From Aureispira sp. CCB-E (GTDB lineage: Bacteria; Bacteroidota; Bacteroidia; Chitinophagales; Saprospiraceae), in the NCBI RefSeq assembly GCF_031326345.1, contig NZ_CP133672.1, positions 1-64,000 on the forward strand: a stretch of DNA of 64,000 nt. Direction: 5' to 3'. This document shows, one piece after another, positions 17,247 to 63,619 of this stretch. The notes below the pieces were generated by a model. That model searched no databases, was not told where the DNA came from, and worked only from the letters and a program-made list of their open reading frames with translations. The translations under genes and the position numbers were made by a program. Every line of letters starts with the position of its first letter. Position 1 is the first letter of the stretch.

Positions 17247-17251
17247 ACCAC

Positions 17252-20048: not shown

Positions 20049-20108
20049 TATTAAAAATATTTACAAAAAGTTCAACAGCGCTGATGGATTAAACGAAATC
20101 TATCAAAA

Positions 20109-22592: not shown

Positions 22593-22687
22593 TTGGACGC
22601 TAGTGGACACTAGATGGATGCTAGACATACGATAAAACCTAGAAAAGTGCCTTTGTATCCACTATCCACAAAATATGAACAAGCCCT

Positions 22688-24885: not shown

Positions 24886-24898
24886 TACGAGAGTAGCA
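24878..24898 (+). other. attR-like junction at displaced Rhs tip
   Basis: Element right arm TAGAACA (24878-24884), spacer TTACGAG (24885-24891), then resident right half AGTAGCA (24892-24898). Joining the resident left half at 9574 to this right half gives codons for L-Y-E-S-S-N-H-L-G-N with the frame intact. The displaced tip behind it is therefore the original 3' end of this rhs gene. Confidence 0.65.
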
Positions 24899-24903
24899 AC
24901 CAC

Positions 24904-44885: not shown

Positions 44886-44943
44886 TGAATATTTGGTTTG
44901 TTATTAAATAAACAGTAATTTGATTTTTATACATAAAATAAAA

Positions 44944-49067: not shown

Positions 49068-49271
49068 TCGGAGTTATTGAAGTTTGTAAATAGTGATTTC
49101 GCAACTACTAATTTACTAATTTTTCAATTTCTCCATTTTTTGTCCTGTACTTAGATCTTTAAGAACTTTTTCTGTATCTTTCATTCGGAGTTATTGAAGT
49201 TTGTAAATAGTGATTTCGCAACTACTAATTTACTAATTTTTCAATTTCTCCATTTTTTGTCCTGTACTTAG
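49038..49271. repeat. 117-bp tandem duplication of the IS right end
   Basis: Two apparently identical 117-bp copies start ATCTTTAAGAAC and end GTCCTGTACTTAG. Confidence 0.85.
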
Positions 49272-49575: not shown

Positions 49576-50232
49576 TCAAGTAGCATCTAAAAACTGTTTT
49601 AGCAACTTGGTATAGTGAATTAATGATTGATTTGCTTGTTTTAGGTCAATGATTAACTCAGAATAATGAGGGTAGCTTTCTTGAATTTCTTGTGGAGATA
49701 ATTGACTATGTGCTACTCGTTTGCTTTCAATTTTATACCACTTTCGAAAAGCAGCTTGATGATTTGTTAAGTGAGGTCTTAGTCCTTCATTTAATATTTT
49801 TGCTGTTAGATCAATTAGTGCATTACCTGAGTATTTCTTCTGCAAATGATGTCCAGGAATTGTTTTTATTTCTTCTCGAATAAATCCGAATAATTGATAC
49901 CAAGAATCATAAATTTCAATAATAACATCTTTTCCTTCTTCAAAGGGTAAGGTTACTTTTCTAGTAATTAATTCTATATAGATTCTATTGGCAATATACA
50001 AGTTAGAATAATCTCTTTTTACCTTAAATGTAGCTTTAGGATTCCCTGAAATTTCTATGCCCATTTCTACAAGCTGGAATTTATTCTTGCCATATCTTTT
50101 GACAATAAATAAAAGGATTAGAATAGAGAATATTCCAATTAAGAATAGCACTCCTAATTCTATATGTAAGCTTAAATCAGAATAATCCATATGTAAACGG
50201 ATTATTCTGAAAGTCGTCATTGCATCCCTCAT
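49576..50232 (-). CDS. Single-pass membrane protein, last gene of TIR operon
   Basis: 218 residues from ATG 50232, which overlaps the upstream stop by one base (TAATG). One transmembrane helix at about 25-45 (ELGVLFLIGIFSILILLFIV), then a cytoplasmic domain with RIYIELITRKVTLPFEEGKD, VIIEIYDSWYQLFGFIREEI and ILNEGLRPHLTNHQAAFRKW, a conserved-looking pattern that I associate with proteins near TIR genes without being able to name the family. A membrane-anchored effector of the operon is one possibility: several cyclic-nucleotide-type defence systems pair a sensor enzyme with a membrane effector. Confidence 0.65.
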   Translation of the reverse strand: MRDAMTTFRIIRLHMDYSDLSLHIELGVLFLIGIFSILILLFIVKRYGKNKFQLVEMGIEISGNPKATFKVKRDYSNLYIANRIYIELITRKVTLPFEEGKDVIIEIYDSWYQLFGFIREEIKTIPGHHLQKKYSGNALIDLTAKILNEGLRPHLTNHQAAFRKWYKIESKRVAHSQLSPQEIQESYPHYSELIIDLKQANQSLIHYTKLLKQFLDAT

Positions 50233-51023
50233 TATGTACAAGTATTTTTTTTCATCTGAGGTCTTGAATTAATACGTTTGTCTGCTTGAGCTTTCCGATT
50301 GGCAAAAGCTAATTCAATATATTCCTGTAGTTTCTTACGATCGGTCGTATAATTTCTAATAATCGCATAACCCGTTTCAACATTATCTATAAATCGTTGA
50401 GGATGTTTAGAAGAGGTGTATTTTCCCGTATTATAGTCAGGGTGTGATGGTAAAATTAAGCCCAATACTCCTGCATATCCGTCACCAACTTTTAGGTTTA
50501 GTGCACCACTAATTTCCCAGTCAATATGTTTGCGGCATTTGGTCTTGTTACCAAGTAATAGAATTAAAACAGTAGTATCCTTTAAATAACCTTTTAGAAT
50601 CAGTTGCTTGATGTATTCATCGCTTAAATCAGATTTTATATCTCCATCTTCTACAGATTTATTGACAATTAAATCTGTCGTTAAGTGTTTGAAATGCTCT
50701 TTATCTGTTTGGTTATCTTTATGGTAATAACTAATAAATGATTTTCGTCTAGGAAGAATTAAAGGTAAGGCTGAATTATCTTTAGAATTGAAATTTTGAC
50801 TAAGTGTTAAGGGGGCACCTTTACACCATTGTCCTTGTTCATTTTTATGAATGCAACGAAAAATTTTACCAGTTCTCAATTGTTGGATTACCCAGCTTTT
50901 TTGTCGTTCTATACCATTGTCATCTATGGAAGCGTAATCATTGGAATGAACTAAAAAAGATTCCACAACTCCCTTTTTTTTCCATTTTAATTTTGATACA
51001 AAATAATCTGCTGTTCGACTCAT
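50232..51023 (-). CDS. DUF3892-like plus ThsB-type TIR protein
   Basis: 263 residues. Residues 1-65 (DYFVSKLKWKKKGVVESFLV through IQQLRTGKIFRCI) look like a DUF3892-type small beta domain. Residues about 90-235 form a TIR-like DUF1863 domain: RRKSFISYYHKDNQTDKEHF, LILKGYLKDTTVLILLLGNK, HIDWEIS with the conserved acidic residue, and GVLGLILPSHPDY. The DUF1863/ThsB group is known from Thoeris, where TIR enzymes make NAD-derived signals on phage infection. 6 bp separate it from the upstream TIR gene and it is coupled to the membrane protein downstream. Confidence 0.8.
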   Translation of the reverse strand: MSRTADYFVSKLKWKKKGVVESFLVHSNDYASIDDNGIERQKSWVIQQLRTGKIFRCIHKNEQGQWCKGAPLTLSQNFNSKDNSALPLILPRRKSFISYYHKDNQTDKEHFKHLTTDLIVNKSVEDGDIKSDLSDEYIKQLILKGYLKDTTVLILLLGNKTKCRKHIDWEISGALNLKVGDGYAGVLGLILPSHPDYNTGKYTSSKHPQRFIDNVETGYAIIRNYTTDRKKLQEYIELAFANRKAQADKRINSRPQMKKNTCT

Positions 51024-51029
51024 GATCGT

Positions 51030-51620
51030 TTACTTGTTAAGATTTAGAATTTTGTGTAAAGGATGATTATATTTTAGGAAGACATCTTGAACACGCCCTT
51101 CTGTGAGCAATTGTTTTTTACTTGAATTAAGGACAATGGCAATGTACTCGTTGAACGATTTTCCTCCTTTAATATCAGGTGCTGTTTGCAAGTAGTCAGG
51201 AAGCACTCTATTAGAAATATCCTCTAATCGTAATATACTAACTTGATATTCTTTTGATTTTTGATTAAAAGAGTTATCAACAATAGCAGCATGTGCATAA
51301 CCAATTTCAAAAGGAACCCATTGAGATTTAATGGTCTCAGCAGAAATTACACATAAAATATGCGTACTTTCTTTAAGACCCTTCTTGATACATTTTGTGA
51401 TGCTCTTTTTATCATTTTCAAGAGTGGCAATCTGTAGTTCTTCATCATAACAATCGAGATAAATATCAATACCAGCGTCATTAAGATATGCTCCAATTTC
51501 TATACATGCATTTTTATCTTTGCTCTTATGGCTCAGAAACACACATTTTTTGCCTTTTGTGCGATGTTCTGTTAACAATCGCATATTAACTTTAGGGTTG
51601 GCTCGATTAATTCCTTTCAT
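51030..51620 (-). CDS. TIR-domain protein
   Basis: 196 residues, essentially one TIR domain. KCVFLSHKSKDKNACIEIGA is the first strand and BB-loop side, GIDIYLDCYDEELQ the second strand, HILCVISAETIKSQWVPFEI with GYAHAA carries the putative catalytic Glu in the W-x-x-x-E position. NAD-cleaving or cyclising activity is the known role of such bacterial TIRs. Third from the end of the TIR operon. No membrane segment or other domain. Confidence 0.85.
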   Translation of the reverse strand: MKGINRANPKVNMRLLTEHRTKGKKCVFLSHKSKDKNACIEIGAYLNDAGIDIYLDCYDEELQIATLENDKKSITKCIKKGLKESTHILCVISAETIKSQWVPFEIGYAHAAIVDNSFNQKSKEYQVSILRLEDISNRVLPDYLQTAPDIKGGKSFNEYIAIVLNSSKKQLLTEGRVQDVFLKYNHPLHKILNLNK

Positions 51621-51626
51621 TATTTA

Positions 51627-53711
51627 TTATTTATTGGGATTAAAAAAATTATTCAGTCCTTTAAGTATCAATCTAGTAATCTCAAGGAGGTTGTTGGAGG
51701 TAAACAATATTTGGTTTTCTTCGGACGATAAACCATTGTTTAGGTTATTATCATTCTGTTTCCAGTAGTTGTCAAAGAATTTAGAGAGTGAATCATAATG
51801 AATACGATCATTAAGCATCTGTTTATCTTCTTGCCACAACTCTTGTGCATATTTTTGGTAAGTGGTATATTTTTGATTCCAATGCTCATTTTGATAATTT
51901 TCTAAGGAATCTTCTTGAATAAGAGGACTCTCTTTTCCCTCAAACAACTGAATTAAAGCTGCACTGATTCCTCCAAAAGCCCCAACAATATAAATCGGAC
52001 GTTGATATTTTAGAGCCCAGTAAGCTTCTTCTAAAATACCTGATATAAGTCCTTTATAACCTCTTATTTTTCCTGCAATAAAAATCTGAGCATCGTTTTG
52101 CTCAAACATTTTTTTACGCATATAAGTCAATGAAATAGCGGCTTCAGGACTTTCTAAATCAGAAAATGGATGAGTCAATGGATTCTCATGAAATTTGAAA
52201 TCAATTATTCCTTTGTATTTGCTTCTGATATGGATGTCTTTTTTGACAAATTCAGAAATAGGATAAAAAACGTGATTAATAATAGGAGTAATATCATCCT
52301 GATAATCTTCTCGATAAGATGCAATCAACTCACTAAGTATATTGGTGAAACTTAATTCTTTAGAGTAGTTAATATCTCCTCCATAAGCGCAATTAGCTCC
52401 TGTAACCAATAGATAACGAGAAATTTCAACTAACGCATCTTGTAGATGAAGGTGATCAAATAATTGATATCCGCCTTTGACTAGGTTAGGGTTTTCAGAA
52501 ATAGATAAACCTATGGTCTTATTATGTAAGAAATTTTCATTATAAACTTCTTGAATAAGCGTTTGTGACATATAGAGCATGGGGGTTGTAAACTCTATAT
52601 TAGGTTTTTTAGTCCTTAAAATGGATAACTCTTCGTTTCCTAAAGGAGGATCTGGGTACAGTAAAAGCTGTTTTTGATTATCTTGATTTAATATCAATAG
52701 TTCAGGAGGTAAAGCCAAAGATTGATAGCTTCTAATGTTATCATTATTTGACTGACTAACAATAGTTTTATTTAGTTTTTTATGATATTTAAATCGAAGT
52801 GTTTCTAATAAAACCGTAGCTATTATTTCCTTAATATTGCTATTGCCTGTTTCTGTTATTTGTAACTTAATACTTGGGAAATTACCTAAATAAGGAAACA
52901 CTCGTTTAGTATGATTTTTGGTTGCATTAACATGAACGATTGGGCAATAATGTTGCTTAGCGTACAAAATTTCTTTAATACACCATTCTCTAGAACTATA
53001 TTCATCTGTATTTAAGACTAGAAAAATAGATTCTGTAATAGCATTCGTAATCTCTTTTTCAAAATTTTCTCCTTTCCCAATATCCTTAACATCTATAAAA
53101 GAAGTTAGTCCAAATCTTAACTTATCAATTGCATTTTTGACTAATAGAGCTAAATTACTACCATCCTGTCGAGCATGGCTAATAAAAACGGTAACAGGAA
53201 GTTCACGTTCATTATTTTTAAGGGGATATAGTCTTGTAGATAATTTAAATGCAATTTGTAATAATAGTTCATCTTCTTTTTCTTGACTTTTAAAGTCATA
53301 TAAGTTGAGACGGTTACTGATGTTTAATTTTGTCGAAAATTGACTAGCTTGTTCGTGTGTAGCAATAGGGTAAAAAAGTGTTTTATGTTGATTGTTATGA
53401 CAATGCTTGTGAACCGCCAATATTTCTTGTTCCCATTTGATTGGAGCATCATCTATAATCATATGCTCATCTATAAAAAATAGAATGCAAGTTTGTTCAG
53501 CTTCTTCCCAGTTAATGGTTTCCATTAAATGTTTAGGATTGGATATAAAATAAGTTGGAATCCCAATTCCTCGTTGCAAAGGGTGCTGCACATCTCTTGA
53601 AAAGGTCGAAAAAATGGTGTTTGCATATTCAAAACCTTGGTAGTTGTTAGTATGCCATAAAACGTAAATGCTTAAAGGATATTTCATAGTTAACAATAGA
53701 TTATTGGTCAT
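51627..53711 (-). CDS. TIR-like + TIR + SLOG protein
   Basis: 694 residues. N-terminal domain (1-150) with IYVLWHTNNYQGFEYANTIF and ILFFIDEHMI, TIR-like but diverged. A clear TIR domain at about 170-310: LPVTVFISHARQDGSNLALL, FIDVKDIGKGENFEKEI, and SREWCIKEILYAKQHYCPIV with the catalytic Glu. The C-terminal third is a Rossmann-type SLOG domain: TIGLSISENPNLVKGGYQLF, YLLVTGANCAYGGDIN, AQIFIAGKIRGYKGLISGIL and PIYIVGAFGGISAALIQLF. SLOG domains bind nucleotide-derived signals, as in ThsA of Thoeris, where the signal activates the attached enzyme. By analogy this is the likely effector or NADase of the operon (inference). Confidence 0.85.
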   Translation of the reverse strand: MTNNLLLTMKYPLSIYVLWHTNNYQGFEYANTIFSTFSRDVQHPLQRGIGIPTYFISNPKHLMETINWEEAEQTCILFFIDEHMIIDDAPIKWEQEILAVHKHCHNNQHKTLFYPIATHEQASQFSTKLNISNRLNLYDFKSQEKEDELLLQIAFKLSTRLYPLKNNERELPVTVFISHARQDGSNLALLVKNAIDKLRFGLTSFIDVKDIGKGENFEKEITNAITESIFLVLNTDEYSSREWCIKEILYAKQHYCPIVHVNATKNHTKRVFPYLGNFPSIKLQITETGNSNIKEIIATVLLETLRFKYHKKLNKTIVSQSNNDNIRSYQSLALPPELLILNQDNQKQLLLYPDPPLGNEELSILRTKKPNIEFTTPMLYMSQTLIQEVYNENFLHNKTIGLSISENPNLVKGGYQLFDHLHLQDALVEISRYLLVTGANCAYGGDINYSKELSFTNILSELIASYREDYQDDITPIINHVFYPISEFVKKDIHIRSKYKGIIDFKFHENPLTHPFSDLESPEAAISLTYMRKKMFEQNDAQIFIAGKIRGYKGLISGILEEAYWALKYQRPIYIVGAFGGISAALIQLFEGKESPLIQEDSLENYQNEHWNQKYTTYQKYAQELWQEDKQMLNDRIHYDSLSKFFDNYWKQNDNNLNNGLSSEENQILFTSNNLLEITRLILKGLNNFFNPNK

Positions 53712-53789
53712 TAATAGAAGATCTATTATGATTATTTGATAGAAATAATTGCGTTAAATCTAATTAGAAAGGGAATCAGGGATTTAGTT

Positions 53790-54341
53790 TTAATCTTGCC
53801 ATTGCCATTGATAAAATGACCTATTGTTTCTAAATAAAGTCCTAGAATTATCAGGAATAATATTATACCGTCGATTAAAAGCTTCATGAATCCAATCTTG
53901 AACACAATTTTTATTCATAGTCCAATTATATATTTTGGCAAAGCCTTTTTCTACATTATCTTGAAGTCTAGGAGGAATTGTATATGGATTATATGTTTTT
54001 TTACCATAATCAGGATGAGAAGGCAATAATATACCAATTAATCCCATCCTAGAATTATACTGTGTATCTCTTATACTAGAGGAAATTTCCCAATCTATAT
54101 ATTTACGTTTCCAAGTATCTTTCCCTATCAAGACCACAAGAACTGTTGAATCTCGTAAATATTCATCTCTAATTTTTCGTCGAATAGTTTCTGTTTTTAA
54201 GTTAGGTGCAATATCTCCTAGTTGAACGGATTTAGAAACCATAATATCATAACAATGACTAAAGCATTGCTCAAATTCATTTCTATAAGATTGATCATTT
54301 TCATGATGATAGCTCACAAAAACATTGTGTCGTCTACCCAT
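53790..54341 (-). CDS. ThsB-type TIR protein (DUF1863)
   Basis: 183 residues, a single DUF1863 TIR domain: RRHNVFVSYHHENDQSYRNE, IRDEYLRDSTVLVVLIGKDT, KYIDWEISSSIRDTQ with the acidic residue, and MGLIGILLPSHPDYGK. It is similar in layout to the TIR part of the protein at 50232 but distinct in sequence. ThsB proteins sense infection and produce a cyclic ADP-ribose-type signal. It is followed 78 bp later by the TIR-SLOG gene, the same order of sensor next to SLOG effector as in Thoeris. Confidence 0.85.
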   Translation of the reverse strand: MGRRHNVFVSYHHENDQSYRNEFEQCFSHCYDIMVSKSVQLGDIAPNLKTETIRRKIRDEYLRDSTVLVVLIGKDTWKRKYIDWEISSSIRDTQYNSRMGLIGILLPSHPDYGKKTYNPYTIPPRLQDNVEKGFAKIYNWTMNKNCVQDWIHEAFNRRYNIIPDNSRTLFRNNRSFYQWQWQD

Positions 54342-54347
54342 AATTTA

Positions 54348-54737
54348 TTATTGATTTTGATTTAAAAATAAAGCTACTTCGTTGAGGTCTTTGAACCAAT
54401 AGGCGCCATTGTGTTGCACCATTTTTCCAACAGCTTTTAAGGATTTAATTTGATGTTTAGAGAAACCAGCTTCAATGAAACAGAAAATAGTTTTTTTAGG
54501 ACGCTTATTAGAGTCATCTATTGCCTCTGCAATAGAATAAACACCTATCATTTCCACTGTAATAACATACAAACAATAATTACATCTTTCTCGTTGCAGC
54601 AGTTCTTCTTGATAAGCCTCTTCTGTCCATACCTCTACTAAAGGATTGAAATAATCTATTTTTAGTTTTGGAATTAATGCTGTTCTCCAAGTAGATTTAT
54701 TACAAGTTCCTCCTAGGAATACTTTTATATTTTTCAT
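54348..54737 (-). CDS. Nucleoside 2-deoxyribosyltransferase-like protein
   Basis: 129 residues. IKVFLGGTCNKSTWRTALIP, YFNPLVEVWTEEAYQEELLQ, CLYVITVEMIGVYSIAEAID and DSNKRPKKTIFCFIEAGF match the deoxyribosyltransferase-like/SLOG-related fold, with the conserved GGT start, NP and the S-x-A-E motif holding the nucleophile-like Glu. Family members cleave or exchange N-glycosidic bonds of nucleosides. First gene of the TIR operon; it may process NAD-derived nucleotides made by the TIR proteins (inference). Confidence 0.8.
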   Translation of the reverse strand: MKNIKVFLGGTCNKSTWRTALIPKLKIDYFNPLVEVWTEEAYQEELLQRERCNYCLYVITVEMIGVYSIAEAIDDSNKRPKKTIFCFIEAGFSKHQIKSLKAVGKMVQHNGAYWFKDLNEVALFLNQNQ

Positions 54738-54809: not shown

Positions 54810-55280
54810 TTAATTAGGACTAATGGAGCTGTGATATTTAAAAACTAAAGCGTCATCAATAATCTCAAAAGAAATAATTCGATCTTCCATAGGAAGGAGC
54901 CCTTTGGGAATAGATATTAATGTGTTTCTAATATCATCTGCACCAATCCAAAAGGCATGAAATTTATCCTTTACAGCAATTACTTCATTGTCTCCCAAAG
55001 AAGTAGTACAATCGTTTATTGGACTACCAAATAAGACTTTTGCATAATGATTTTCACTAATGAGTTTGATTTTTAAATCAAGCTTTTCGCTTGAGAAATT
55101 TCCGATTGGAGCTGTTTCAAGGAGTACCTTTAACTGTTCTTCTTGTTTGTAAACCTGTAATTTTACAGCAGTGGTACTTAGATTAAATGGACTAAAAACT
55201 AGTTCTCCATCTAGTTTAATTGAAAGCTCCTTCGCCTCAGGATTGAAATTAATGGAATCAAAATTCATTGCTTGCGACAT
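54810..55280 (-). CDS. Hypothetical protein (156 aa), beta-rich
   Basis: No signal peptide or membrane helix. Mostly predicted strands: FDSINFNPEAKELSIKLDGE, LKVLLETAPIGNFSSEKLDL and ISFEIIDDALVFKYHSS. No family recognised. It is the last gene of a three-gene minus-strand set with the deiminase-like protein 68 bp upstream, so it may be its partner or regulator (inference from position). Confidence 0.55.
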   Translation of the reverse strand: MSQAMNFDSINFNPEAKELSIKLDGELVFSPFNLSTTAVKLQVYKQEEQLKVLLETAPIGNFSSEKLDLKIKLISENHYAKVLFGSPINDCTTSLGDNEVIAVKDKFHAFWIGADDIRNTLISIPKGLLPMEDRIISFEIIDDALVFKYHSSISPN

Positions 55281-55348
55281 AATAATTAAAAATTTAAATG
55301 AAATAAGGGGCCTACTCTATTGTGGCTTTTCGGTTTCCGCCATTTAAT

Positions 55349-56752
55349 TTATTCTCGTTCAATACAATTCGTCAGACAATTGAGGGACCCTTGTCTGCGT
55401 ATAAATGGGTTAAAATCCTGACGCATTAGAACAACCTTATACCCCAAATCTTCCCATAACCATTGATTTTGCAAATCATGACTATGCAGTTCTGTCCAAG
55501 ATCCATAAGATTGACCTGTTTTAGAGCAGGTTCTATGCGAATAATCACTATTAATCCCATAAGAAGGGATAATAACATTTTTGACAATTCGAGCATCTAA
55601 TCCACTATTATCATAATAATTTTCTACCAAACAGTTGTTATAACTTGCCCAGCACCAATGGCGTGTTTTTCTTTCATTAACAATCTCGTCATAATAAGTT
55701 AATGGAAGTGGATTTCGGACAATTTGAAACGATATGTTTAAGTCTGAAAATTCTTTTTTAAGCAAGCGAATCACTTCATTGATAGCACATTTTGTTTGTA
55801 TAATAATATCTTTAACTAATTGTTTTACATCAGCAGGTATATCATCTGTCAATGCAAAACCAATAGTAGGTTCACCAATAACAAAAATTTCTTGCCCTGC
55901 CTTATTTTTACCAGCAGCGGTCATAAATAGATCACCATGAAAAAGAGGTTGTTTTTTTGCACTGGCATCATACCGATTATAAAAATTATCACTTGTTATT
56001 TTACATTCAGGCCAAGAAATCGATAAATCAGTAGATTTTGATTCTAAAATAATTATATTTTTTCCAAGCCATTTTTTTCCAAATTGTCGAATTAGTTGTC
56101 GATTACTTTGATGGATACCAATAATAATAAAACGATCTCCAACCAACACATTCCCTCCAACAAATGGAATAGGACTATCACTATGTCGAATTGTAAAGTT
56201 AGGGATTGTGATTTGCTCTAAACTATTCACTAGTTCTTTGGCAACATTTTTATTACTTGCCTCATTGGAAGGTTCTACTAGATAAATTTGATCCTCTCCA
56301 TCAACAGTATATGTAATTGATAGAAAACAATCTTGTGCCCAAGGTGCCAAATCACGAGAGTCATAAATAATTGGAATCAAATAAAAAGTATTCCCATTTT
56401 GTCTAGCTAATAGACTCAGTTCATCGCATTCTGATCCTGACAATACATTGGATTCTGCTACCAATAAAAAACGTCGCCCTCCTCCGTTAAACTGTTCTAT
56501 GAATTCTTTAACAAATTTGAAATAAGGATAAACAGTATAAGCTCCATTGGTTGGAAAAAATAAAATAATTGTTTTTAATCTTCCATATACAGAAGAAACA
56601 ACTCTAGGATTTTCTCCTGGGGCTTTATTTGTCGTTCTTTGAGGATAAAGGAATCGTTCTGTTCGTTGGCTACCTTTTACTCCCGTTTTAGTGGATTTAG
56701 ATAAACTACTTAATTGGGAAGGTAATAACTTAAGAGGTAAGCTTCTTGCCAT
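55349..56752 (-). CDS. Peptidylarginine/agmatine deiminase-like protein
   Basis: 467 residues without signal peptide. The guanidino-group-modifying enzyme superfamily is suggested by RLKTIILFFPTNGAYTVYPY, the acidic motif DSRDLAPWAQDCFLSI (compare the W-x-R/Q-D region of agmatine deiminases), PFVGGNVLVGDRFIIIG, FHGDLFMTAAG with an H-x-D pair, and the C-terminal GSLNCLTNCIERE with a Cys in the C-x-T-N context used as nucleophile by these enzymes (Cys about 459). All four catalytic positions are therefore plausible. It would convert arginine or agmatine side groups to citrulline or carbamoyl forms. Its presence in a defence island is unusual. Alternatives: a related amidinotransferase. Confidence 0.65.
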   Translation of the reverse strand: MARSLPLKLLPSQLSSLSKSTKTGVKGSQRTERFLYPQRTTNKAPGENPRVVSSVYGRLKTIILFFPTNGAYTVYPYFKFVKEFIEQFNGGGRRFLLVAESNVLSGSECDELSLLARQNGNTFYLIPIIYDSRDLAPWAQDCFLSITYTVDGEDQIYLVEPSNEASNKNVAKELVNSLEQITIPNFTIRHSDSPIPFVGGNVLVGDRFIIIGIHQSNRQLIRQFGKKWLGKNIIILESKSTDLSISWPECKITSDNFYNRYDASAKKQPLFHGDLFMTAAGKNKAGQEIFVIGEPTIGFALTDDIPADVKQLVKDIIIQTKCAINEVIRLLKKEFSDLNISFQIVRNPLPLTYYDEIVNERKTRHWCWASYNNCLVENYYDNSGLDARIVKNVIIPSYGINSDYSHRTCSKTGQSYGSWTELHSHDLQNQWLWEDLGYKVVLMRQDFNPFIRRQGSLNCLTNCIERE

Positions 56753-56756
56753 TTTG

Positions 56757-57224
56757 TTATGTTGTTTTTAAAGAAAAATTAATGCTCATGGTTGGGTTGT
56801 CAAATTTGATAGTATTCTCTTGTCTAAGTATCGTTACAGGAAGAACAACGGTAAAAAGTTGGTGAAATAGAGTTGTACTACGATCTCTAGTGTTGATGAA
56901 TGCATTGGTATGAATTAATTTTTTTATTTTAATTCGGTTCATAGCTAATCGCCTATAATTTCCTAATAGAATTAGTGAAAACTCTAAAGGATCTTTATTA
57001 GATTTAAATTCAAAATTTTTATTATGTAGTACTCGTGTATTGTTTGAGTCCAGAGTAATAACATAATCGTTTAATGTGGATCCTTTTTCTAAGTATGCTA
57101 ATTCAAAAGTTTCTTGATGTACTAATAAGAGTAGAAAAAACTCCATTGAAATATCAAAAAAGTGTTTTATAAAAGCATTGCAATCTTTCTTTAGAATCAG
57201 TTGCTCAATCTCAAGTTTGTACAT
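56757..57224 (-). CDS. Hypothetical protein (155 aa)
   Basis: MYKLEIEQLILKKDCNAFIK, a hydrophobic stretch MEFFLLLLVHQETFELAYLE that is too polar at its end for a clear membrane helix, then LILLGNYRRLAMNRIKIKKL and strands at the C-terminus. No family recognised. It starts the three-gene set; 4 bp separate it from the deiminase-like gene. A 150-bp divergent promoter region lies between it and the helical-repeat gene. Confidence 0.5.
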   Translation of the reverse strand: MYKLEIEQLILKKDCNAFIKHFFDISMEFFLLLLVHQETFELAYLEKGSTLNDYVITLDSNNTRVLHNKNFEFKSNKDPLEFSLILLGNYRRLAMNRIKIKKLIHTNAFINTRDRSTTLFHQLFTVVLPVTILRQENTIKFDNPTMSINFSLKTT

Positions 57225-57374
57225 GGTATCATTAGTTTAATGGTTGTTTGTTTTCGATATTGCAAAACTGAGAAAATTGCATGCTACTCCAAAACCATTA
57301 ACTTTGGAATTGCGGAATTCTGAACTTGGATATAGTGCTTCTTTTTTTATAAAAAATAAACTAATTTATCACCT

Positions 57375-58922
57375 ATGGCGACAGGAAAAGCCTTATTTGA
57401 TTTAATAAAAACATTATCACCTAGCGAAAAACGAAGTTTTACGCTGAATAATAGACTTCAAAAAAAAAATGAAAAAGATGGTAAAAAAACATACTACAAT
57501 GAAATTTTTAATATTTTGTATGAACTAGGAGACTATAATAAAGAAGAAATTTTAGCTCGATTAATAGATCAAATAGGCAATGATTTACTTAAAACTGATC
57601 CTAAGTCGATTCTTCGGCATTCGGAAAACTATCTTTATGAAAAACTAATTGAAACCTTAAAAACTTCCTATGCTAATAAATCCATCAGCATTCAACTGCA
57701 AGATTTAATTTTAGAGGCTCAAATTTTAGATGAAAGAGGGTTACATCTAAAAGCAATTAGCGTTTTTAAGAAAGCAGAAAATCTAGCCTTGAAATATCAT
57801 AAGAATACTTTTTTATTAGAAATTCTTCCTCAAAAAGCAGCAGCTATTGTGGCGCTTGAAAAAAAAGACATTAAGGAGCAAATAGACGCTGTTTATCAAA
57901 TGGCACATGTTGCTGCCAATACTTTAAAAGAAGAAATGGCTTATCGTCATGAAAATATCAAGTTAACGACGATCTTTAGAACAAAAAATGAACAAAAAAA
58001 ATCAGATCAATTCATCTCAAATGAGATTAGAGATACGTATGCAAAAACTGAAAGTAAAGATTTTCCGATTCACGGTTCCTTTTTTTCGCAGTATTACTAT
58101 TATAATATCCTAGCCTTATCAGCACATCTCCAAAAAAAGCTTCAACTCGCCATTGAACATCAAAAAAAAGCGATCGAAATATGGAATCAACATCCACATA
58201 TTATTGAAAAAGATGCATCGTCTTATATGACACAGTTGGCAAATCTTATCAATTACCATATTTGTGCTAAAGAATTTGTAGAAGCAGAAGCAATTATTGA
58301 AAAACTAGAAACTGTAAAAATTCCTCAAAAGAATACAGATGCCAAAGGCGAACAGTTCCAAAATGTTTATTTTTACCGACAAATGCTTTATCTGAACCAA
58401 AAAAAATATCCAGCTGCACTAGAACTCATACAGGGAATTGAAGGAGGGCTAAAAAAGTATAAAAACAAGATTAATGAATCGAGAAAAGTTGCATTTTTTT
58501 ATAACATAGGCTTAATATATTTGTTAAACAATGATTTTGATAAAGCACTTCATTGGTTACAAAAAATTTCAAGAAGTACTCGTTTTAATGAACATCGACC
58601 TAAGCTTGTTCGAAGTGCTCGTTTATTGCAATTAGCCATTTTTTATGAATTAGAAAGTTCAAAAGTAGTAGATAATCTTAGCCGAAATATTAAAGACAAT
58701 AAGAAGAATACCATTAGCATTTTTGAAGATATTTTGCTTAAATTTTTTGATCAATTAAATAAATGTGTGCCTTCTTCTAAAAAAGAAAAAGAGATTTTTG
58801 CCCATTTCCAAGAAGCGTTAAAAGGATTAGAAGACAAGGAAGTTATAGGCTATGAAGCCTATTGTCATTGGGTAGAAGGTCATCTTAATCCTATAAAAGA
58901 TAAATATGATTGGAGCAATTAA
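57375..58922 (+). CDS. Helical-repeat (TPR-like) protein, 515 aa
   Basis: All-helical, no signal peptide. MATGKALFDLIKTLSPSEKR at the start; TPR-like helix pairs in the middle and C-terminal half (ILDERGLHLKAISVFKKAEN, YYYNILALSAHLQKKLQLAI, FFYNIGLIYLLNNDFDKALH). Such proteins usually act as protein-interaction scaffolds or sensors. The only plus-strand gene in this part of the island, divergent from the deiminase set; its last 4 bp overlap the end of the convergent csx20-like gene. Function unknown. Confidence 0.65.
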   Translation: MATGKALFDLIKTLSPSEKRSFTLNNRLQKKNEKDGKKTYYNEIFNILYELGDYNKEEILARLIDQIGNDLLKTDPKSILRHSENYLYEKLIETLKTSYANKSISIQLQDLILEAQILDERGLHLKAISVFKKAENLALKYHKNTFLLEILPQKAAAIVALEKKDIKEQIDAVYQMAHVAANTLKEEMAYRHENIKLTTIFRTKNEQKKSDQFISNEIRDTYAKTESKDFPIHGSFFSQYYYYNILALSAHLQKKLQLAIEHQKKAIEIWNQHPHIIEKDASSYMTQLANLINYHICAKEFVEAEAIIEKLETVKIPQKNTDAKGEQFQNVYFYRQMLYLNQKKYPAALELIQGIEGGLKKYKNKINESRKVAFFYNIGLIYLLNNDFDKALHWLQKISRSTRFNEHRPKLVRSARLLQLAIFYELESSKVVDNLSRNIKDNKKNTISIFEDILLKFFDQLNKCVPSSKKEKEIFAHFQEALKGLEDKEVIGYEAYCHWVEGHLNPIKDKYDWSN

Positions 58923-59278
58923 GCTTTTGGATATTCCCGAAATTGTTCAAACTCAAACAAGACGGTTTTTTGCCCATTTTCTTCTGCCACTACTTTGCGT
59001 TGTGAGGTACTAGCAATGCAAGAAATCCTCTGCTTTTGTAACAATCGTACCAAGGTGAAGGTAAAGGTCATTTCTCCCATTAGATGAACTGCTTGTGGTT
59101 GCAATGCTACAATTCGTTGACAGTAATTTATCGCTAATTTTTGTATCTCTTCACTACTATTTTGGGGGGCAATGGTAGGGAAGGGGAGGTCTTCTATTTT
59201 TCCGTATTGAGCGATGGCGTTTTGTCGCTGTGCTTTTCCCCATTGATCAGAAAGGTGATTGCTTAGGTTTAGGAGCAT
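58919..59278 (-). CDS. Csx20-like CRISPR-associated protein
   Basis: 119 residues: MLLNLSNHLSDQWGKAQRQN, the DLPFPTIAP motif, YCQRIVALQPQAVHLMGEMT and ISCIASTSQRKVVAEENGQK with a final FEFEQFREYP. This looks like the small CRISPR-linked family annotated as Csx20, in which MGE and CIAST motifs form a CARF-like Rossmann core. If correct it would bind or degrade cyclic oligoadenylate made by the Cmr complex. Last gene of the cmr operon. The assignment is from memory of the motif pattern. Confidence 0.6.
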   Translation of the reverse strand: MLLNLSNHLSDQWGKAQRQNAIAQYGKIEDLPFPTIAPQNSSEEIQKLAINYCQRIVALQPQAVHLMGEMTFTFTLVRLLQKQRISCIASTSQRKVVAEENGQKTVLFEFEQFREYPKA

Positions 59279-59295
59279 GTCTTAATGAATTTAGT

Positions 59296-59541
59296 TTACC
59301 ATTTTAAATCTCGATTACGACGAACTTGCCAATCCCCATAGCATCTCAATACATTTGCTCTAAAATAACCTCCTACAGAATTAGCTTGCTGCAATTCTTC
59401 AAATATCTCTTGTTCGACTTCTTCGTAAGCATATATTTTATCTGTGGTGGCAAATTCTGCAAAAAGTGTCTGACTGTCTGCATCATACCCAATCGCTGAA
59501 ATCATGCTGCTGTCTACTGGAATGAGTGTTACTTCTATCAT
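59296..59541 (-). CDS. KTSC-domain protein
   Basis: 81 residues. VDSSMISAIGYDADSQTLFA, KIYAYEEVEQEIFEEL and ANSVGGYFRANVLRCY match the KTSC domain, named for a motif near the C-terminus of lysyl-tRNA synthetases and found alone in phages and defence loci. The KTSC domain is thought to bind RNA or nucleic acids. It sits between cmr6 (11 bp upstream) and the csx20-like gene (17 bp downstream). Confidence 0.75.
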   Translation of the reverse strand: MIEVTLIPVDSSMISAIGYDADSQTLFAEFATTDKIYAYEEVEQEIFEELQQANSVGGYFRANVLRCYGDWQVRRNRDLKW

Positions 59542-59552
59542 TTTTTATTGTT

Positions 59553-61004
59553 TTATGTGGTCATGTAACCGTAGCCTACGGCTGTTTTTGCGCCTATGCC
59601 GTGTTCGCTTAGAGCTTGTTTTAGCCAATCTATAATTGTTTTGTCTTGAAATGGTTGATTTAATAATCCCTCATTTCCTTTTTCTCCTATAATAAATTGG
59701 AATTTAGTGCCTTTTGCTACAGTGAGAAAAGGAATAGGAATAGGACTTTCTGTATCTACAGGTGCTTTATGTTTTTTATTGTCAATATCCCCATAATAGT
59801 CACTATAATGTGGTGTCATTATATCTGTTTCTATTGTGGGTTCTGATGCAGGAAAGGCATCAAAGAAGACGATGTTACCCTTATGCGCTTTTGAATCCAA
59901 CGCCTTATCATCTGTTCCAAAAATGGCTGCAAAAATATTATCTTGCATAGCCACTTTTTCTAATCTTTTATTTTGTTCTTTAGACTCTAACTGGTTAAAT
60001 GTTTCATCTCTGTCCAATAGACTTGGATAAATTACTTCTTGAATTATCCAACTTCTAACCACGCCTTTGATACTACTAGCAGGAATATAAGGAATTCCAT
60101 AAATATGATGCAAGGTCATAGAGGTCTCATAAACAGAAGCACCACCCAAACCAACGACCATGCGCCCATCTGTGGCTTGTGTCCAGCATTTATGTTGAGG
60201 GGTGATGAGCTTGGCTTGTTTTTTTTGTTTTTGTAGGATGTAGTCTATAAGATTTTTATGCGAGAGTTTTTTAGTGGCATATTGATTAATATCAATACTA
60301 AATTTATCTTTCTCTACAACTCCTAATCTTGCGGTTTTGTTTAATTCTAAATAAAAGTTATCTATTTGTTTAAAATTAGATGCTGCCAATAGTTGATAAC
60401 TATCAAAGGGTAAACGTTTACCACTTAGAAGCTCTCCCATACGAATATCTAATGCAGTTCCTTTAAAATTTACTTGACTCTTAACAAAGGTAAGTGAGTC
60501 CTTTTCTAAGTAATTCTCAAGTGATTCTTTCTTTTTCTTAAATTTGCTTTCTTCTATTATTGATGATACCAGAACATATTTTTCTCCTACAATATCTTCT
60601 CCACTATATTGGGGGACATCTAGATTATGTTGGTTTATTTTGAAAATATCACTTTTTTTGAAATAAATAATGAAAGGACTTTGTATGTCAAAATTATCAA
60701 AATTAAAATTTCTAGGAATTTTCTTATTAGTAGATTGGATCGTAATTTTATTATCTTGTTTTGATAAAAAATCAATGATAATATGCTTATATTTTCTAGG
60801 TAATTCTATACCTTTTTTATTTGTTATTTTAAATACTATTTTCTCTATACAATGAGCGGTATATTCTTGGTCTTCCTTAGCTTGGTTGAAATCATAATAG
60901 TCTTCTAATTTAGGTAAACAAAAACTAAGAGATTCGTCAGAATATATAGACCACTGAGAATTTGAATATTCTAATAAAATATTATATTCTTTGTATTCTT
61001 TCAT
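59553..61004 (-). CDS. cmr6: Type III-B RAMP protein Cmr6, long form
   Basis: 483 residues, longer than typical Cmr6. The C-terminal 200 residues hold the RAMP core: MVVGLGGASVYETSMTLHHI, YGIPYIPASSIKGVVRSWII, AIFGTDD and GNIVFFDAFPASEPTIETDI, with a glycine-rich GIGAKTAVGYGYM at the end. The N-terminal half is specific to this protein, with a LDIRMGELLSGKRLPF segment. Cmr6 caps the Cmr effector complex at the crRNA 3' side. 3 bp lie between it and cmr5. Confidence 0.88.
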   Translation of the reverse strand: MKEYKEYNILLEYSNSQWSIYSDESLSFCLPKLEDYYDFNQAKEDQEYTAHCIEKIVFKITNKKGIELPRKYKHIIIDFLSKQDNKITIQSTNKKIPRNFNFDNFDIQSPFIIYFKKSDIFKINQHNLDVPQYSGEDIVGEKYVLVSSIIEESKFKKKKESLENYLEKDSLTFVKSQVNFKGTALDIRMGELLSGKRLPFDSYQLLAASNFKQIDNFYLELNKTARLGVVEKDKFSIDINQYATKKLSHKNLIDYILQKQKKQAKLITPQHKCWTQATDGRMVVGLGGASVYETSMTLHHIYGIPYIPASSIKGVVRSWIIQEVIYPSLLDRDETFNQLESKEQNKRLEKVAMQDNIFAAIFGTDDKALDSKAHKGNIVFFDAFPASEPTIETDIMTPHYSDYYGDIDNKKHKAPVDTESPIPIPFLTVAKGTKFQFIIGEKGNEGLLNQPFQDKTIIDWLKQALSEHGIGAKTAVGYGYMTT

Positions 61005-61007
61005 AAT

Positions 61008-61391
61008 CTATTTATTTTCTTTTTCAATCAATCCATCCGAAAAACGCTTTAACCAATTAAATAAAGCTAGAACTTCTATAGTTACAGCACGATAGCTAGA
61101 ACTGTCTAATTCAATTAAAACTTTGACTAAATCATCATTTTTTGAAAATGTTTTCCCAAGAGCTAAATTCTCTTTGAGCCAATCATGAGTCTGTTTATAC
61201 AATAATTTATAAGTTTTTTCTTTTTCCTTAGATTTCATAAATGCAAAAGCAGCCCCCAAGCCATTTGTTTTTATCATCATAGGTATATTTTTAACATGAG
61301 ATTTATAGTCCTTACCCAAGTCCTTACCTTGTAAAGCACATTTATACGCAAACGCAGCCCGTCCACCTTCCAGTTGTTTTAAATTAGCCAT
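61008..61391 (-). CDS. cmr5: Type III-B Cmr5 small subunit
   Basis: 127 residues, all-helical: GGRAAFAYKCALQGKDLGKD, HVKNIPMMIKTNGLGAAFAF, YKLLYKQTHDWLKENLALGK and YRAVTIEVLALFNWLKRFSD. Usual length and pattern of Cmr5, which lines the minor filament and contacts target RNA. 7 bp after cmr4. Confidence 0.88.
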   Translation of the reverse strand: MANLKQLEGGRAAFAYKCALQGKDLGKDYKSHVKNIPMMIKTNGLGAAFAFMKSKEKEKTYKLLYKQTHDWLKENLALGKTFSKNDDLVKVLIELDSSSYRAVTIEVLALFNWLKRFSDGLIEKENK

Positions 61392-61398
61392 TGTTCTT

Positions 61399-62433
61399 TT
61401 AGTTTTCTTGTTTACATTCTTTATCAGATACTGATGTTAAAAATTGTGTCCTAGTGATACCCTTTCCTAAAGTAGCACTACCTCCAATCTGCACGACATT
61501 AGGAATTTTAGTAAAAAAGTCAACTACTTGACAAGCTGATAAACCATCCTTTTTAAATTCAGGTGCAGCTAAAATCATTGAATATAGGATAGATTCAGCA
61601 GGTAAATATTCTTCTGTAAATAATCCCGTATCTGCTGCTGTACCAGTAATGTTATTAATCTTATTACGAGTAATAACCTCTGTGCTTAAATTGACAAAGT
61701 CCTTAAAAGCATCATCGCTAAGAATGACAATACTAGATTTTATTTTTTCTTCCCAATAACTATTGGCTTGTACAATGTTATTATTTACCAGCCATTCTCC
61801 TAAAAAGCAACCATCTTTGTGTTGGTTATTTTTTACAGTACACTGAATCGACGATTTATTTTCAAAAGTATATTCCTCTAAGATGACATATTTATCATTT
61901 ACAAGTAGGGCTTCACCTTGCGTATAACATTCATTGTCAATAATAAAAGAGGGAATACCATCAAGACTGAAATTCTCAAAACATCCTTTCATATCCATTT
62001 CAAACTGTCGCAAGACTTTAGGGCAAGTTATCCAAGCAAAGACACCTTTCATAGACTTAACAGGGAATAAAAATAAACGAGCATCTGAAATGCCTAAACA
62101 ACCTGCAAATTCCTTTTCTTTTTCAGCAAAGAGCTTATCCATTTCTTCTTTAGGAAAGCCTTTTAAAGCTGCATTGTCGAAACCAAAAATTTTGTTAAGT
62201 TCTTTTATTTTTTCTCTAAAACTCTCATCAATTTTATTTTCTTTTAATTGATCCAGAACTTTATTCTCAAAAGCTTCCCTCAAAGCTCCTTTTAAACTAG
62301 AGCCTTCAATTTTAGGGAAGCTGGTGTGTCGTTCTCTTTGGATGGGAAGGTCAACAATACCCAAATCAGAACCACTCCCTGCATGGAGAGGGGTTTCACA
62401 AATTAGAAATAGTGGATTAGCGTGTTTATACAT
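61399..62433 (-). CDS. cmr4: Type III-B RAMP protein Cmr4 (backbone, target RNA cleavage)
   Basis: 344 residues. PLFLICETPLHAGSGSDLGI, DLPIQRERHTSFPKIEGSSL, KGALREAFE, CLGISDARLFLFPVKSMKGV and GGSATLGKGITRTQF. The Asp in the GSGSDLGIVDLPIQRE region is the family's target-RNA-cutting residue (Asp26-equivalent). Cmr4 forms the main filament of the effector. Overlaps the CARF-nuclease gene by 8 bp. Confidence 0.92.
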   Translation of the reverse strand: MYKHANPLFLICETPLHAGSGSDLGIVDLPIQRERHTSFPKIEGSSLKGALREAFENKVLDQLKENKIDESFREKIKELNKIFGFDNAALKGFPKEEMDKLFAEKEKEFAGCLGISDARLFLFPVKSMKGVFAWITCPKVLRQFEMDMKGCFENFSLDGIPSFIIDNECYTQGEALLVNDKYVILEEYTFENKSSIQCTVKNNQHKDGCFLGEWLVNNNIVQANSYWEEKIKSSIVILSDDAFKDFVNLSTEVITRNKINNITGTAADTGLFTEEYLPAESILYSMILAAPEFKKDGLSACQVVDFFTKIPNVVQIGGSATLGKGITRTQFLTSVSDKECKQEN

Positions 62434-63619
62434 GATTATTGTTTAAGTGTTCTTTAAGTTTATTTGCAATTTCATTTAGGTGCCAAACGGGTAATTTAGC
62501 CCGCTCAGCTGCGGCTATAGCTTTAGTGATTTTATCATTTATTTTATTACTATCTTCTTTAACCATTGGAGTAATGAGTATAGGTAATCCATATACCCCA
62601 GATATTGCATAGGTAGAATAGTTAGTACTTTTTGCTACATCTCCTGTCATTTTTCCACTTTTGCACTCAAAATTTAATATTTGGCCGTGTTTAGTGAGAA
62701 TGATAATGTCAAATTCATCAATGATTTCATTTGATGTATGACTCATATGGTTGATTTTTGTACTAGCGTACAATCCAATTAATTGAGACTTAATGATTGG
62801 ATTTTTTTCTATAGCTTTTAATAAAAGGCAAATTGCCATATCTTCTAGGATATAGCCAAAGGATTTTTTATTTTTATATTTTGACCAAAATATTTTAATT
62901 TCTTCTTTAGTTAAAGAGGAAGTTTGAGGTAGGTTAAGTTCATCAATAATAACATCTAAGTCGCTTCCATTTTGGTTGCTTTTTGTAAGTGAAACAGGGA
63001 TAGATGGATGCTCTTTATAAATAGGATAAAATTTGTTATAAAATTCTTTTTCTTCATCAAATCCACCCTTTTGTAAATTTTGGGGCAATTTAGGTATATT
63101 ATAGCCCATCAATTGGAGTGCAATTTTAAGGTTCAATTCATTCTCATTCAGTTTATAATCTAAATTATTCCCATCAAAATTTTGAATATCCTGTATTCCC
63201 TTTTCAAACTTCATAATTTGCATTTGCCCAGAGTTACCCTCCAAGTAACAAAGATAATGCGTTTTATCTTCCAATTCTTTTACTAAGTCATAAACAGCTA
63301 ATACAAAGGGACGTTGTCCGCCAGTTATATTCCAAAAGATAGAAGAAGCATTTTCAATGGTTTCATTATCACTTAATCTTTCTTTTAAATTTTCTATATT
63401 AGTTAATTCTTTATATTTAAATGAAATGAAAGGGAGTTCTTCCTCTAAGACTTTTTGGAAGTTTTTATCCCAATTTTCATTCTTATCATCATCTGTAGTA
63501 ATATTTAAAATATTTTGGAATCCAAAATACTTTAAAGGAATATAATTAACCATTTGATTTTGGGTAGATAGCATAATATATAGACTATTCCCAATTTCTA
63601 TTTTTTGTTCTTCGTTCAT
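62426..63619 (-). CDS. CARF-PD-(D/E)xK nuclease (Card1/Can2-like)
   Basis: 397 residues. N-terminal CARF domain with SIFWNITGGQRPFVLAVYDL near 95-112; NITGGQRP is the ligand-binding CARF signature. C-terminal DUF1887-type PD-(D/E)xK nuclease: GYILEDMAICLLLKAI (Glu), DEFDIIILTKHGQIL (Asp) and NFECKSGKMTG with the E-x-K pair. Known relatives are activated by cyclic tetra-adenylate from the Cas10 subunit and cut DNA and RNA. It sits inside the cmr operon between cmr3 and cmr4, with overlaps on both sides (4 and 8 bp), so expression is tied to the complex. Confidence 0.85.
   Translation of the reverse strand: MNEEQKIEIGNSLYIMLSTQNQMVNYIPLKYFGFQNILNITTDDDKNENWDKNFQKVLEEELPFISFKYKELTNIENLKERLSDNETIENASSIFWNITGGQRPFVLAVYDLVKELEDKTHYLCYLEGNSGQMQIMKFEKGIQDIQNFDGNNLDYKLNENELNLKIALQLMGYNIPKLPQNLQKGGFDEEKEFYNKFYPIYKEHPSIPVSLTKSNQNGSDLDVIIDELNLPQTSSLTKEEIKIFWSKYKNKKSFGYILEDMAICLLLKAIEKNPIIKSQLIGLYASTKINHMSHTSNEIIDEFDIIILTKHGQILNFECKSGKMTGDVAKSTNYSTYAISGVYGLPILITPMVKEDSNKINDKITKAIAAAERAKLPVWHLNEIANKLKEHLNNNHV

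What the first reader, a model, noticed from the sequence alone, without database searches (positions are those of the whole stretch)
54810..57224. Deiminase-like protein in a defence island
A cytosolic protein with the likely Asp, H-x-D and C-x-T-N residues of arginine/agmatine deiminases is flanked by two unknown small proteins on the same strand. Arginine deimination is not an established prokaryotic antiphage activity, so the trio may be a new defence or regulatory module.
Basis: partly seen in the sequence, partly recalled or inferred. Interest (0 to 1): 0.6.

Follow-up and report, generated by a model that had tools for sequence, protein, structure and literature searches.

The report
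Arginine-deiminase gene cassette near defence genes
A plasmid of a marine bacterium carries an enzyme that looks built to change arginine into citrulline, together with small partner proteins and a likely regulator that travel with it as a unit in related bacteria; it is wedged between two defence systems and may be a new kind of immune or regulatory module, but no activity has been tested.

Summary
The 467-aa middle protein (55349-56752) has a confident predicted pentein fold (pLDDT 82.8; Z 25-27 to agmatine deiminases, 20-25 to peptidylarginine deiminases); its Asp, His, Asp and Cys are invariant in 71 of 71 aligned rows. No Pfam or NCBIfam model matches it or its two small neighbours. In one genome upstream protein and deiminase form one polypeptide; elsewhere the upstream slot holds trypsin-like or subtilisin-like proteins, 4 of 5 lacking the catalytic Ser by eye. 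The downstream protein (IGxDDxR motif) was found only beside deiminases in 396 genomes, one marginal match aside. At a syntenic locus the trio diverges far faster than most neighbours. The window copy lies on a plasmid between a TIR/SLOG cluster and type III-B CRISPR genes; one other cassette of 23 also precedes the TIR/SLOG pair, the other 21 do not. Best reading: a peptidylarginine-deiminase-like conflict module. The enzyme class is well supported; the defence role and protein substrate are inferred.

The parts
55349..56752 (-). PAD-like deiminase, 467 aa, pentein fold; catalytic D141, H272, D274, C459; disordered N-terminal tail of about 41 residues with an LKLLP motif
54810..55280 (-). downstream small protein, 156 aa, predicted mostly beta (pLDDT 67.9), IGxDDxR motif (here IGADDIR); found beside deiminases
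56757..57224 (-). upstream small protein, 155 aa, fast evolving; protease-like proteins stand in its place in some loci; fused to the deiminase in L032
57375..58922 (+). TPR-like repeat protein, 515 aa (Pfam TPR matches below cut-off), divergently transcribed; the two cassette copies are the closest of 17 match places in the genome to the profile
57225..57374 (.). 150-bp divergent intergenic region between the operon and the TPR-like gene; presumed promoter region (inference)
49576..54737 (-). context, not part of the module: TIR/SLOG cluster (TIR-SLOG 51627-53711, ThsB-type TIR 53790-54341, TIR 51030-51620, TIR 50232-51023, PF15891 nucleoside-deoxyribosyltransferase-like 54348-54737, unknown 49576-50241); related clusters occur elsewhere without the deiminase
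58919..63619 (-). context: type III-B CRISPR genes (Cmr5, Cmr4, RAMP protein, Card1-type CARF, Csx20-like below cut-off) and a KTSC-domain protein

Best explanation
The four genes encode one module. A TPR-like protein (divergent gene) and small partner proteins bind or gate a cytosolic pentein enzyme that hydrolyses arginine side chains, most likely in proteins or peptides, to citrulline plus ammonia. The upstream slot (small protein, or a trypsin-like or subtilisin-like protein that mostly lacks its catalytic Ser) is proposed to be an exchangeable substrate or trigger adaptor, and the IGxDDxR protein a fixed subunit or inhibitor. Triggered deimination would inactivate phage proteins or vital host proteins, so that the module works as a conflict (anti-phage or abortive-infection) system. 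Shown: module, fold, frozen active site, fast divergence, one fusion, defence-plasmid context of the window copy. Inferred: protein substrate, adaptor role, sensing, defence. My split: guanidino deiminase chemistry about 0.85, real multi-gene module about 0.95, the whole protein-directed conflict mechanism about 0.37.
For: Fold: Foldseek top 6b10 agmatine deiminase E 7e-14, PAD3 E 1.4e-11; VIA-align Z 27.1 Medicago agmatine deiminase (rmsd 3.0, 307 aligned), PAD1 Z 24.9 (rmsd 4.0, 303), PPAD 4yt9 Z 24.2 (rmsd 3.4, 295). Catalytic D, H, D, C in 71 of 71 rows. A profile of 35 homologues aligns its HxD and Cys motifs with those of human PAD1 (E 0.06) and its Cys motif with H. pylori agmatine deiminase (E 0.0055); weak, and plant EDS1 follows at 0.16. 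TPR-like gene upstream and divergent in 18 of 23 loci, 18 of 21 with at least 2.2 kb upstream; 11 of the 18 were not in the profile. Downstream protein: 14 matches in 10 of 396 genomes, 13 beside a deiminase, the 14th at E 7e-4. L032: the upstream-protein profile, built without it, matches at E 6.8e-33 inside the same 835-aa ORF as the deiminase. Divergence between syntenic loci of two Aureispira genomes: four flanking genes 62.6-87.9% identical, TPR-like 73.9%, but upstream protein 41.5%, deiminase 39.8%, downstream 27.0%. Patchy: deiminase profile in 11 of 396 genomes of the order. Defence context: TIR/SLOG pair downstream on the same strand in the window and in L074, although the TIR-SLOG protein was found in only 4 of 396 genomes; plasmid with Rep3, ParA, Cas1, Cas6b, Cmr genes.
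Against: No activity or phage data. 21 of 23 loci have no homologue of the window's TIR/SLOG genes in the stretch held, and the orthologous chromosomal copies (L011/L019, L012) sit among ordinary-looking genes. The TIR-SLOG protein occurs in 3 genomes without a deiminase, so that cluster is a separate system. No homologue in viral contigs or phage records, which neither supports nor excludes defence. PADLOC has no convincing model for it. Fast divergence also fits relaxed constraint; an exported gene next to the trio at the syntenic locus is as divergent (24.9%). The highest fold scores are to agmatine deiminases, and the fold cannot tell protein arginine from agmatine or free arginine.
Confidence: 0.37

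Rival explanations
1. Own-protein regulation, not defence: the module citrullinates a host protein (for example an exported or surface protein) to regulate it; the TPR-like protein is a regulator, and the defence neighbourhood of the window copy is incidental.
For: Most loci examined have no homologue of the window's TIR/SLOG genes (21 of 23) and neighbours look ordinary by eye. In three Aureispira chromosomal loci (L011/L019, L012, L013) a gene with an exported look by eye follows the trio, with a papain-family gene after it in L011/L019; the exported gene has a hypervariable tract between two nearly identical genomes.
Against: Rare and patchy: 11 of 396 genomes. Fast divergence of three subunits at one locus is unusual for a conserved regulatory enzyme. 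The exported proteins at that position are not recognisably related to each other.
Confidence: 0.3
2. Small-molecule deiminase: the enzyme acts on agmatine, free arginine or an Asp-Arg dipeptide, either metabolically or to deplete a metabolite during infection.
For: Highest structural scores are to agmatine deiminases, about 2 Z units above the best PADs. W-x-R-D, as in agmatine deiminases, occurs in 3 of 21 cassette rows. In 7 of 7 Pontibacter loci the related stand-alone deiminase shares its locus with an S51/cyanophycinase-type gene (one BLAST cluster); the two tested score 223 and 217 bits against a cut-off of 126.6, suggesting Arg-containing dipeptides for that branch. Two of 9 cassette genomes have a cyanophycinase over cut-off and one of 9 a cyanophycin synthetase over cut-off.
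Against: PF04371 does not match the window protein at E up to 1, while the same genome has a separate PF04371 protein. Position 140 is Q in 15 of 21 cassette rows, not R as in the PF04371 proteins looked at. The own genome shows no cyanophycinase at E up to 0.001 and no cyanophycin synthetase over cut-off. Dedicated protein partners are unexpected for a metabolic enzyme.
Confidence: 0.2
3. Antibacterial toxin and immunity set: the deiminase is a delivered toxin, the IGxDDxR protein its immunity protein, the upstream protein an adaptor or chaperone.
For: Fast-evolving pair side by side; an N-terminally truncated deiminase with the downstream gene intact exists (L150), as for orphan immunity genes; a short LK[IL][LF]P-type motif lies at the N-terminus in at least 9 of 21 rows.
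Against: No delivery domain in the Pfam scans. The upstream protein is fused to the enzyme in L032, and a C-terminal extension stands where the downstream protein would be in L032 and L024, odd for toxin plus immunity. The conserved divergent TPR-like gene is unexplained.
Confidence: 0.1
4. The trio is an accessory of the neighbouring TIR/SLOG or CRISPR system rather than a module of its own.
For: Same strand, with gaps of 72 bp (window, to the PF15891 gene) and 94 bp (L074, to the TIR gene) after the downstream gene.
Against: 21 of 23 loci lack these genes in the stretch held, and 3 of 4 genomes with the TIR-SLOG protein have no deiminase match.
Confidence: 0.03

Closest known systems
Protein-arginine deiminases (PADI/PAD, Pfam PF03068; vertebrate and cyanobacterial three-domain, actinobacterial and fungal two-domain forms: PMC8826395, passages read)
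   Same: Pentein catalytic fold (Z 20-25 to human PAD1-4 chains); same order of Asp, HxD, Cys motifs; HxD and Cys motifs align to PAD1 (weak E); W-x-Q-D as in human PADs (human motif recalled)
   Different: PF03068 does not match the window protein; no recognised extra N-terminal domain in the same chain; dedicated partner genes; calcium sites not examined
Agmatine deiminase / Porphyromonas-type PAD (PF04371)
   Same: Best structural scores (Z 23.5-27); same catalytic Cys/His/Asp motifs
   Different: PF04371 does not match the window protein; W-A-Q-D where three PF04371 proteins have W-x-R-D, though 3 of 21 cassette rows also have R; 467 aa against about 340-385
Stand-alone PAD-like proteins of Pontibacter, Nostocales cyanobacteria, Lentzea, Kocuria, Algoriphagus and others (within L020-L087)
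   Same: Sequence homologues, E down to 2e-38 in the candidate set; identical catalytic residues
   Different: No TPR-like gene in their loci by BLAST clustering, except L048 of a Chitinophagales MAG; mostly shorter branches; up/down profiles were not run on them
VMAP/vWA-MoxR and related conflict systems with inactive trypsin or caspase domains in effector position (PMC7159879, passages read)
   Same: Use of catalytically dead protease domains as partners
   Different: The word deiminase does not occur in that paper; vWA, MoxR or VMAP genes near the cassettes were not searched for by profile

Membership tests
Pentein (guanidino-group-modifying enzyme) superfamily | pentein fold | tested here: met
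   confident model, Foldseek E 7e-14, VIA Z 27.1, rmsd 3.0 over 307 residues
Pentein (guanidino-group-modifying enzyme) superfamily | catalytic Cys, His and two Asp/Glu | tested here: met
   D141, H272, D274, C459 invariant in 71 of 71 rows
Protein-arginine deiminase PF03068 | sequence match to the PAD catalytic-domain model | tested here: not met
   window protein 0 Pfam families at E up to 1; 9 of 35 homologues match at E up to 0.5, best 1.3e-5
Protein-arginine deiminase PF03068 | additional PAD_M or PAD_N domain in the same chain | tested here: inconclusive
   no Pfam match; residues 1-41 of low confidence; folds of the separate small proteins unresolved
Protein-arginine deiminase PF03068 | citrullinates protein arginine | not testable with these tools
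   needs an enzyme assay
Agmatine deiminase / PAD_porph PF04371 | sequence match to the family model | tested here: not met
   window protein 0 families; 6 of 35 homologues match at E up to 0.5, best 2.5e-6
Agmatine deiminase / PAD_porph PF04371 | agmatine hydrolysis | not testable with these tools
   needs an enzyme assay
Known anti-phage system (PADLOC-DB 2.0.0) | match of the core proteins to a PADLOC model | tested here: not met
   none for either small protein or the TPR-like protein; deiminase only 12.5 bits, E 0.015, to a restriction-enzyme model, taken as chance
Anti-phage defence system in general | protects cells from phage | not testable with these tools
   no experiment available
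Anti-phage defence system in general | recurrent association with defence genes | tested here: inconclusive
   TIR/SLOG pair directly downstream in 2 of 23 loci; two other TIR proteins 3-7 kb upstream in a third, L144; 10 neighbours from four other loci gave no convincing PADLOC match; no systematic scan of all neighbours

The most novel reading that the evidence does not exclude
A citrullination-based bacterial immune system: a triggered peptidylarginine deiminase with exchangeable, often dead-protease adaptors and a TPR-like sensor, which switches off phage or host proteins by removing arginine charge.
Probability: 0.27. Interest if true: 0.87.

Novelty: new variant of a known kind. Interest (0 to 1): 0.6.

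Why it matters
Citrullination in animals is a central signal, and PADIs are thought to have come from bacteria (PMC8826395, passages read), but what such enzymes do in bacteria is open. A multi-gene cassette with dedicated partners, rapid divergence and a defence-plasmid copy gives a concrete, testable system for intracellular deimination in bacteria. If it defends against phage, it adds a protein-modifying chemistry that I did not see described as anti-phage in the listings I viewed of the held library (searches; the longer result lists were capped at 12-15 rows).

Tried and rejected
Chance motif: rejected by the fold and by 71 of 71 conservation. Filing as PF03068 or PF04371: rejected, no match for the window protein. 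Downstream protein as a known fold: AlphaFold model only pLDDT 67.9; Foldseek best E 1.3; VIA best Z 2.9, to aspartic proteases; no conclusion drawn. Upstream and downstream families in Pfam: only single weak hits. TPR-like gene as a random neighbour: rejected; the family has 17 match places in the genome, but the two cassette copies score 746 and 655 bits against 211 for the next, and 11 of the 18 cassette TPR-like genes were not in the profile that found them. Diversity-generating mutagenesis as the cause of variation in the downstream and exported genes: the exported-gene differences are of all types with gaps, so replacement or recombination is more likely; the downstream gene has only 7 differences. 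Cyanophycin as the substrate in Aureispira: not supported. Fragment in G006:C299 (L009/L174): same C-terminus as L014 by eye and no downstream-type gene after it, taken as assembly redundancy and dropped. L083 has a deiminase, no partner found, and groups with Rhizobium/Tropicimonas; kept in the 23 as a miss. PF03068 search over 40 genomes rang in no control genome, so it shows nothing. Viral and phage searches: nothing; plasmid records: no near DNA match, 3 protein-level homologues, none over 80% of the query. Neighbour control: PADLOC on 10 neighbouring proteins of L011, L013, L016, L066 and L075 gave matches for 2 only, an E 7e-4 hit and a GTPase-like protein matching LeoA/LeoBC, both read as ordinary GTPases (identity recalled).
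Full report
1. What is there. Searches confirm three minus-strand ORFs at the stated coordinates. The window is part of a 77,276-bp contig (C2) of a 7.39-Mb two-contig genome; Rep3 initiator and ParA genes indicate a plasmid. The organism is an Aureispira (Saprospirales): genome G383, marked 'same species', has two contigs with lengths identical to those of Aureispira sp. CCB-QB1 records. A second, chromosomal copy of the trio exists in the same genome (deiminase 33% identical; layout).

2. The enzyme. Pfam and NCBIfam do not match the 467-aa protein or its two neighbours; PADLOC gives only a chance-level hit. AlphaFold with 35 homologues gives pLDDT 82.8 and pTM 0.85; residues 1-41 are of low confidence. 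Foldseek and VIA-align place it firmly among penteins: agmatine deiminases Z 25-27, P. gingivalis PAD about 24, human PAD1/3/4 mostly 23-25, PAD2 20-22. D141, H272, D274, N373 and C459 are invariant in all 71 aligned rows, W138 is W in 70. PF04371 proteins from two related genomes (397 and 287 bits) show the same order of motifs, W-x-R-D, H-I-D and G-x-x-H-C. Position 140 is Q in 15 of 21 cassette rows (R in 3, E in 2, S in 1) and E in 41 of 50 stand-alone relatives. The W-I-Q-D of human PADs is recalled, not from a call. Nine of 35 homologues match PF03068 and six PF04371 at E up to 0.5; the window protein matches neither.

3. The module. I compared 23 loci of the order, dereplicated by hand, the window included; L011 and L012 are orthologous, the near-copy L019 was left out. 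A TPR-like gene lies upstream and divergent in 18 of 23; two of the five misses lack upstream sequence (L014 685 bp, L145 1464 bp), so 18 of 21. The other misses are L144, L150 (truncated deiminase) and L083 (another branch). Seven of the 18 had been used to build the profile; 11 had not. The downstream profile matches 17 of 23, but all 17 are rows of that profile, so this count is by construction; more telling is the survey of 396 genomes, in which 13 of 14 matches lie beside a deiminase and the last is marginal (E 7e-4). Most of the 13 are again rows of the profile, and at most 9 candidates per genome were scored, so the weight lies in the absence of strong matches elsewhere. In L148 the downstream-type protein stands before the deiminase. 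The upstream protein matches in 10 of 23, two of them (L032, L144) not in its profile. In L066, L068 and L075 the upstream slot holds members of one BLAST cluster (Trypsin_2 over cut-off only for L068; L075 no match) in which the expected catalytic Ser reads E, Q and E by eye; in L017/L081 and L069 it holds an S8 subtilase, with Ser to Ala by eye in L081 and an intact-looking motif in L069. L032 encodes upstream protein and deiminase in one 835-aa chain with a C-terminal extension, and L024 a 617-aa deiminase with a similar extension; the extensions carry a DFR motif resembling DDxR but are not matched by the downstream profile, so their identity is inferred from position.

4. Evolution. The tree of 71 rows clusters the TPR-linked rows in a few deep, long-branched groups (5 label changes against 16.3 in shuffles; well-supported branches force at least 3; the basal split is weak, 65/76), with L048 among the stand-alone relatives. 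Those relatives in Pontibacter, Nostocales, Lentzea and others mostly have shorter branches, with exceptions such as Tropicimonas. At the syntenic locus of G000 and G003 four flanking genes (names such as RsgA recalled) are 62.6-87.9% identical and the TPR-like gene 73.9%, while the upstream protein is 41.5%, the deiminase 39.8% and the downstream protein 27.0%. The exported gene next to the trio is as divergent (24.9%, no significant BLAST match). dN/dS of 0.27-0.40 for the trio against 0.025-0.12 for the four flanking genes points the same way, but dS is near saturation. Between G000 and CCB-QB1 the deiminase and upstream protein have no differences and the downstream gene has 6 non-synonymous and 1 synonymous; the exported gene has 84 and 34, two other flanking genes 5/9 and 3/3: suggestive for the downstream gene, few events.

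5. Context. Downstream of the trio is a TIR/SLOG cluster; on the other side lie type III-B CRISPR genes, with Cas1 and Cas6b at 43.9-45.7 kb. The TIR-SLOG protein is found in 4 of 396 genomes; the three other genomes have no deiminase match and none was seen nearby, so it is a separate system. Yet in L074, a Saprospiraceae MAG, the order recurs: TPR-like, upstream, deiminase, downstream, ThsB-type TIR, TIR-SLOG. A direct comparison finds homologues of the window's six TIR/SLOG-cluster proteins in 1 of the other 22 loci, L074 only. Two unrelated TIR proteins lie 3-7 kb upstream of the L144 deiminase. The other neighbourhoods look ordinary by eye; a check of 10 neighbours from five loci against PADLOC gave only GTPase-type matches. 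I read this as linkage to immunity genes in a minority of loci, not as proof of defence.

6. Mechanism. Shown: fold, catalytic set, module, rapid divergence, one fusion. From established pentein chemistry (recalled): enzymes with this set hydrolyse guanidino groups through a covalent Cys intermediate. Inferred: the substrate is arginine in proteins (dedicated protein partners; protease-like folds in the partner slot that could bind Arg peptides; W-x-Q-D in most rows); TPR-like protein as sensor or regulator; IGxDDxR protein as fixed subunit or inhibitor; outcome is inactivation of phage or host proteins. Rivals are own-protein regulation, small-molecule deimination, and toxin plus immunity.

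7. Known or new. The enzyme belongs to a known superfamily; published PADI surveys cover bacterial PADI types (PMC8826395, passages only), but whether they include this family was not checked. I saw no description of the cassette or of an anti-phage deiminase in the result lists viewed from the held open-access library (several lists capped; most subscription papers and preprints are not held). PMC7159879 and PMC3482391 contain no 'deiminase' in the text held (find only). I rate it a new variant of a known kind.

Noticed in passing
window 36042-36725, 38516-39865: ParA and Rep3 initiator genes: the contig is probably a plasmid.
   Followed up: yes
window 43875-45669 and 58919-63619: CRISPR genes: Cas1, Cas6b, Cmr4, Cmr5, a RAMP protein, a Card1-type CARF protein and a Csx20-like protein (26 bits, below the cut-off of 70).
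   Followed up: partly
window 49576-54737: Multi-gene TIR/SLOG cluster with four TIR proteins, related to loci in L140, L141, L139 and L074; possibly Thoeris-like (ThcB4 56 bits, below the cut-off of 220).
   Followed up: partly
window about 10839-26200: Tandem duplication with a 7652-bp offset: ORFs starting at 10839, 11906, 12457, 15036 and 15859 recur at 18491, 19558, 20109, 22688 and 23511 with the same translations as read by eye; includes two integrase-like genes downstream of an Rhs/YD-type gene.
   Followed up: no
window 49035-49268: Two tandem copies of a 117-bp repeat, 99% identical.
   Followed up: no
L020, L026, L028, L029, L036, L037, L043: Stand-alone PAD-like genes of Pontibacter share their locus with an S51/cyanophycinase-type gene (7 of 7 by BLAST cluster; within 0.5 kb upstream in 6, 4.2 kb in L028), a hint that this branch acts on Arg-containing dipeptides.
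   Followed up: partly
L019:10054-11487 against L011:5496-6959: Exported-looking gene after the trio has a tract of about 600 bp with dense differences inside an otherwise nearly identical stretch of about 14 kb between two Aureispira genomes.
   Followed up: partly
window, deiminase N-terminus (just below 56752) and homologues: Short motif LK[IL][LF]P or LRILP within the N-terminal tail in at least 9 of 21 cassette deiminases (two rows were trimmed there); may be a docking peptide.
   Followed up: no
L011:4312-5460, L019:11523-12671, L149:6188-6994: Papain-family-like genes a few genes downstream of the cassette (Pfam C1 match tested for L019 only; L149 by eye).
   Followed up: no
L150:8586-9170 (same gene as L038): N-terminally truncated deiminase in CCB-QB1, lacking the W-x-Q-D half, with an intact downstream gene.
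   Followed up: partly
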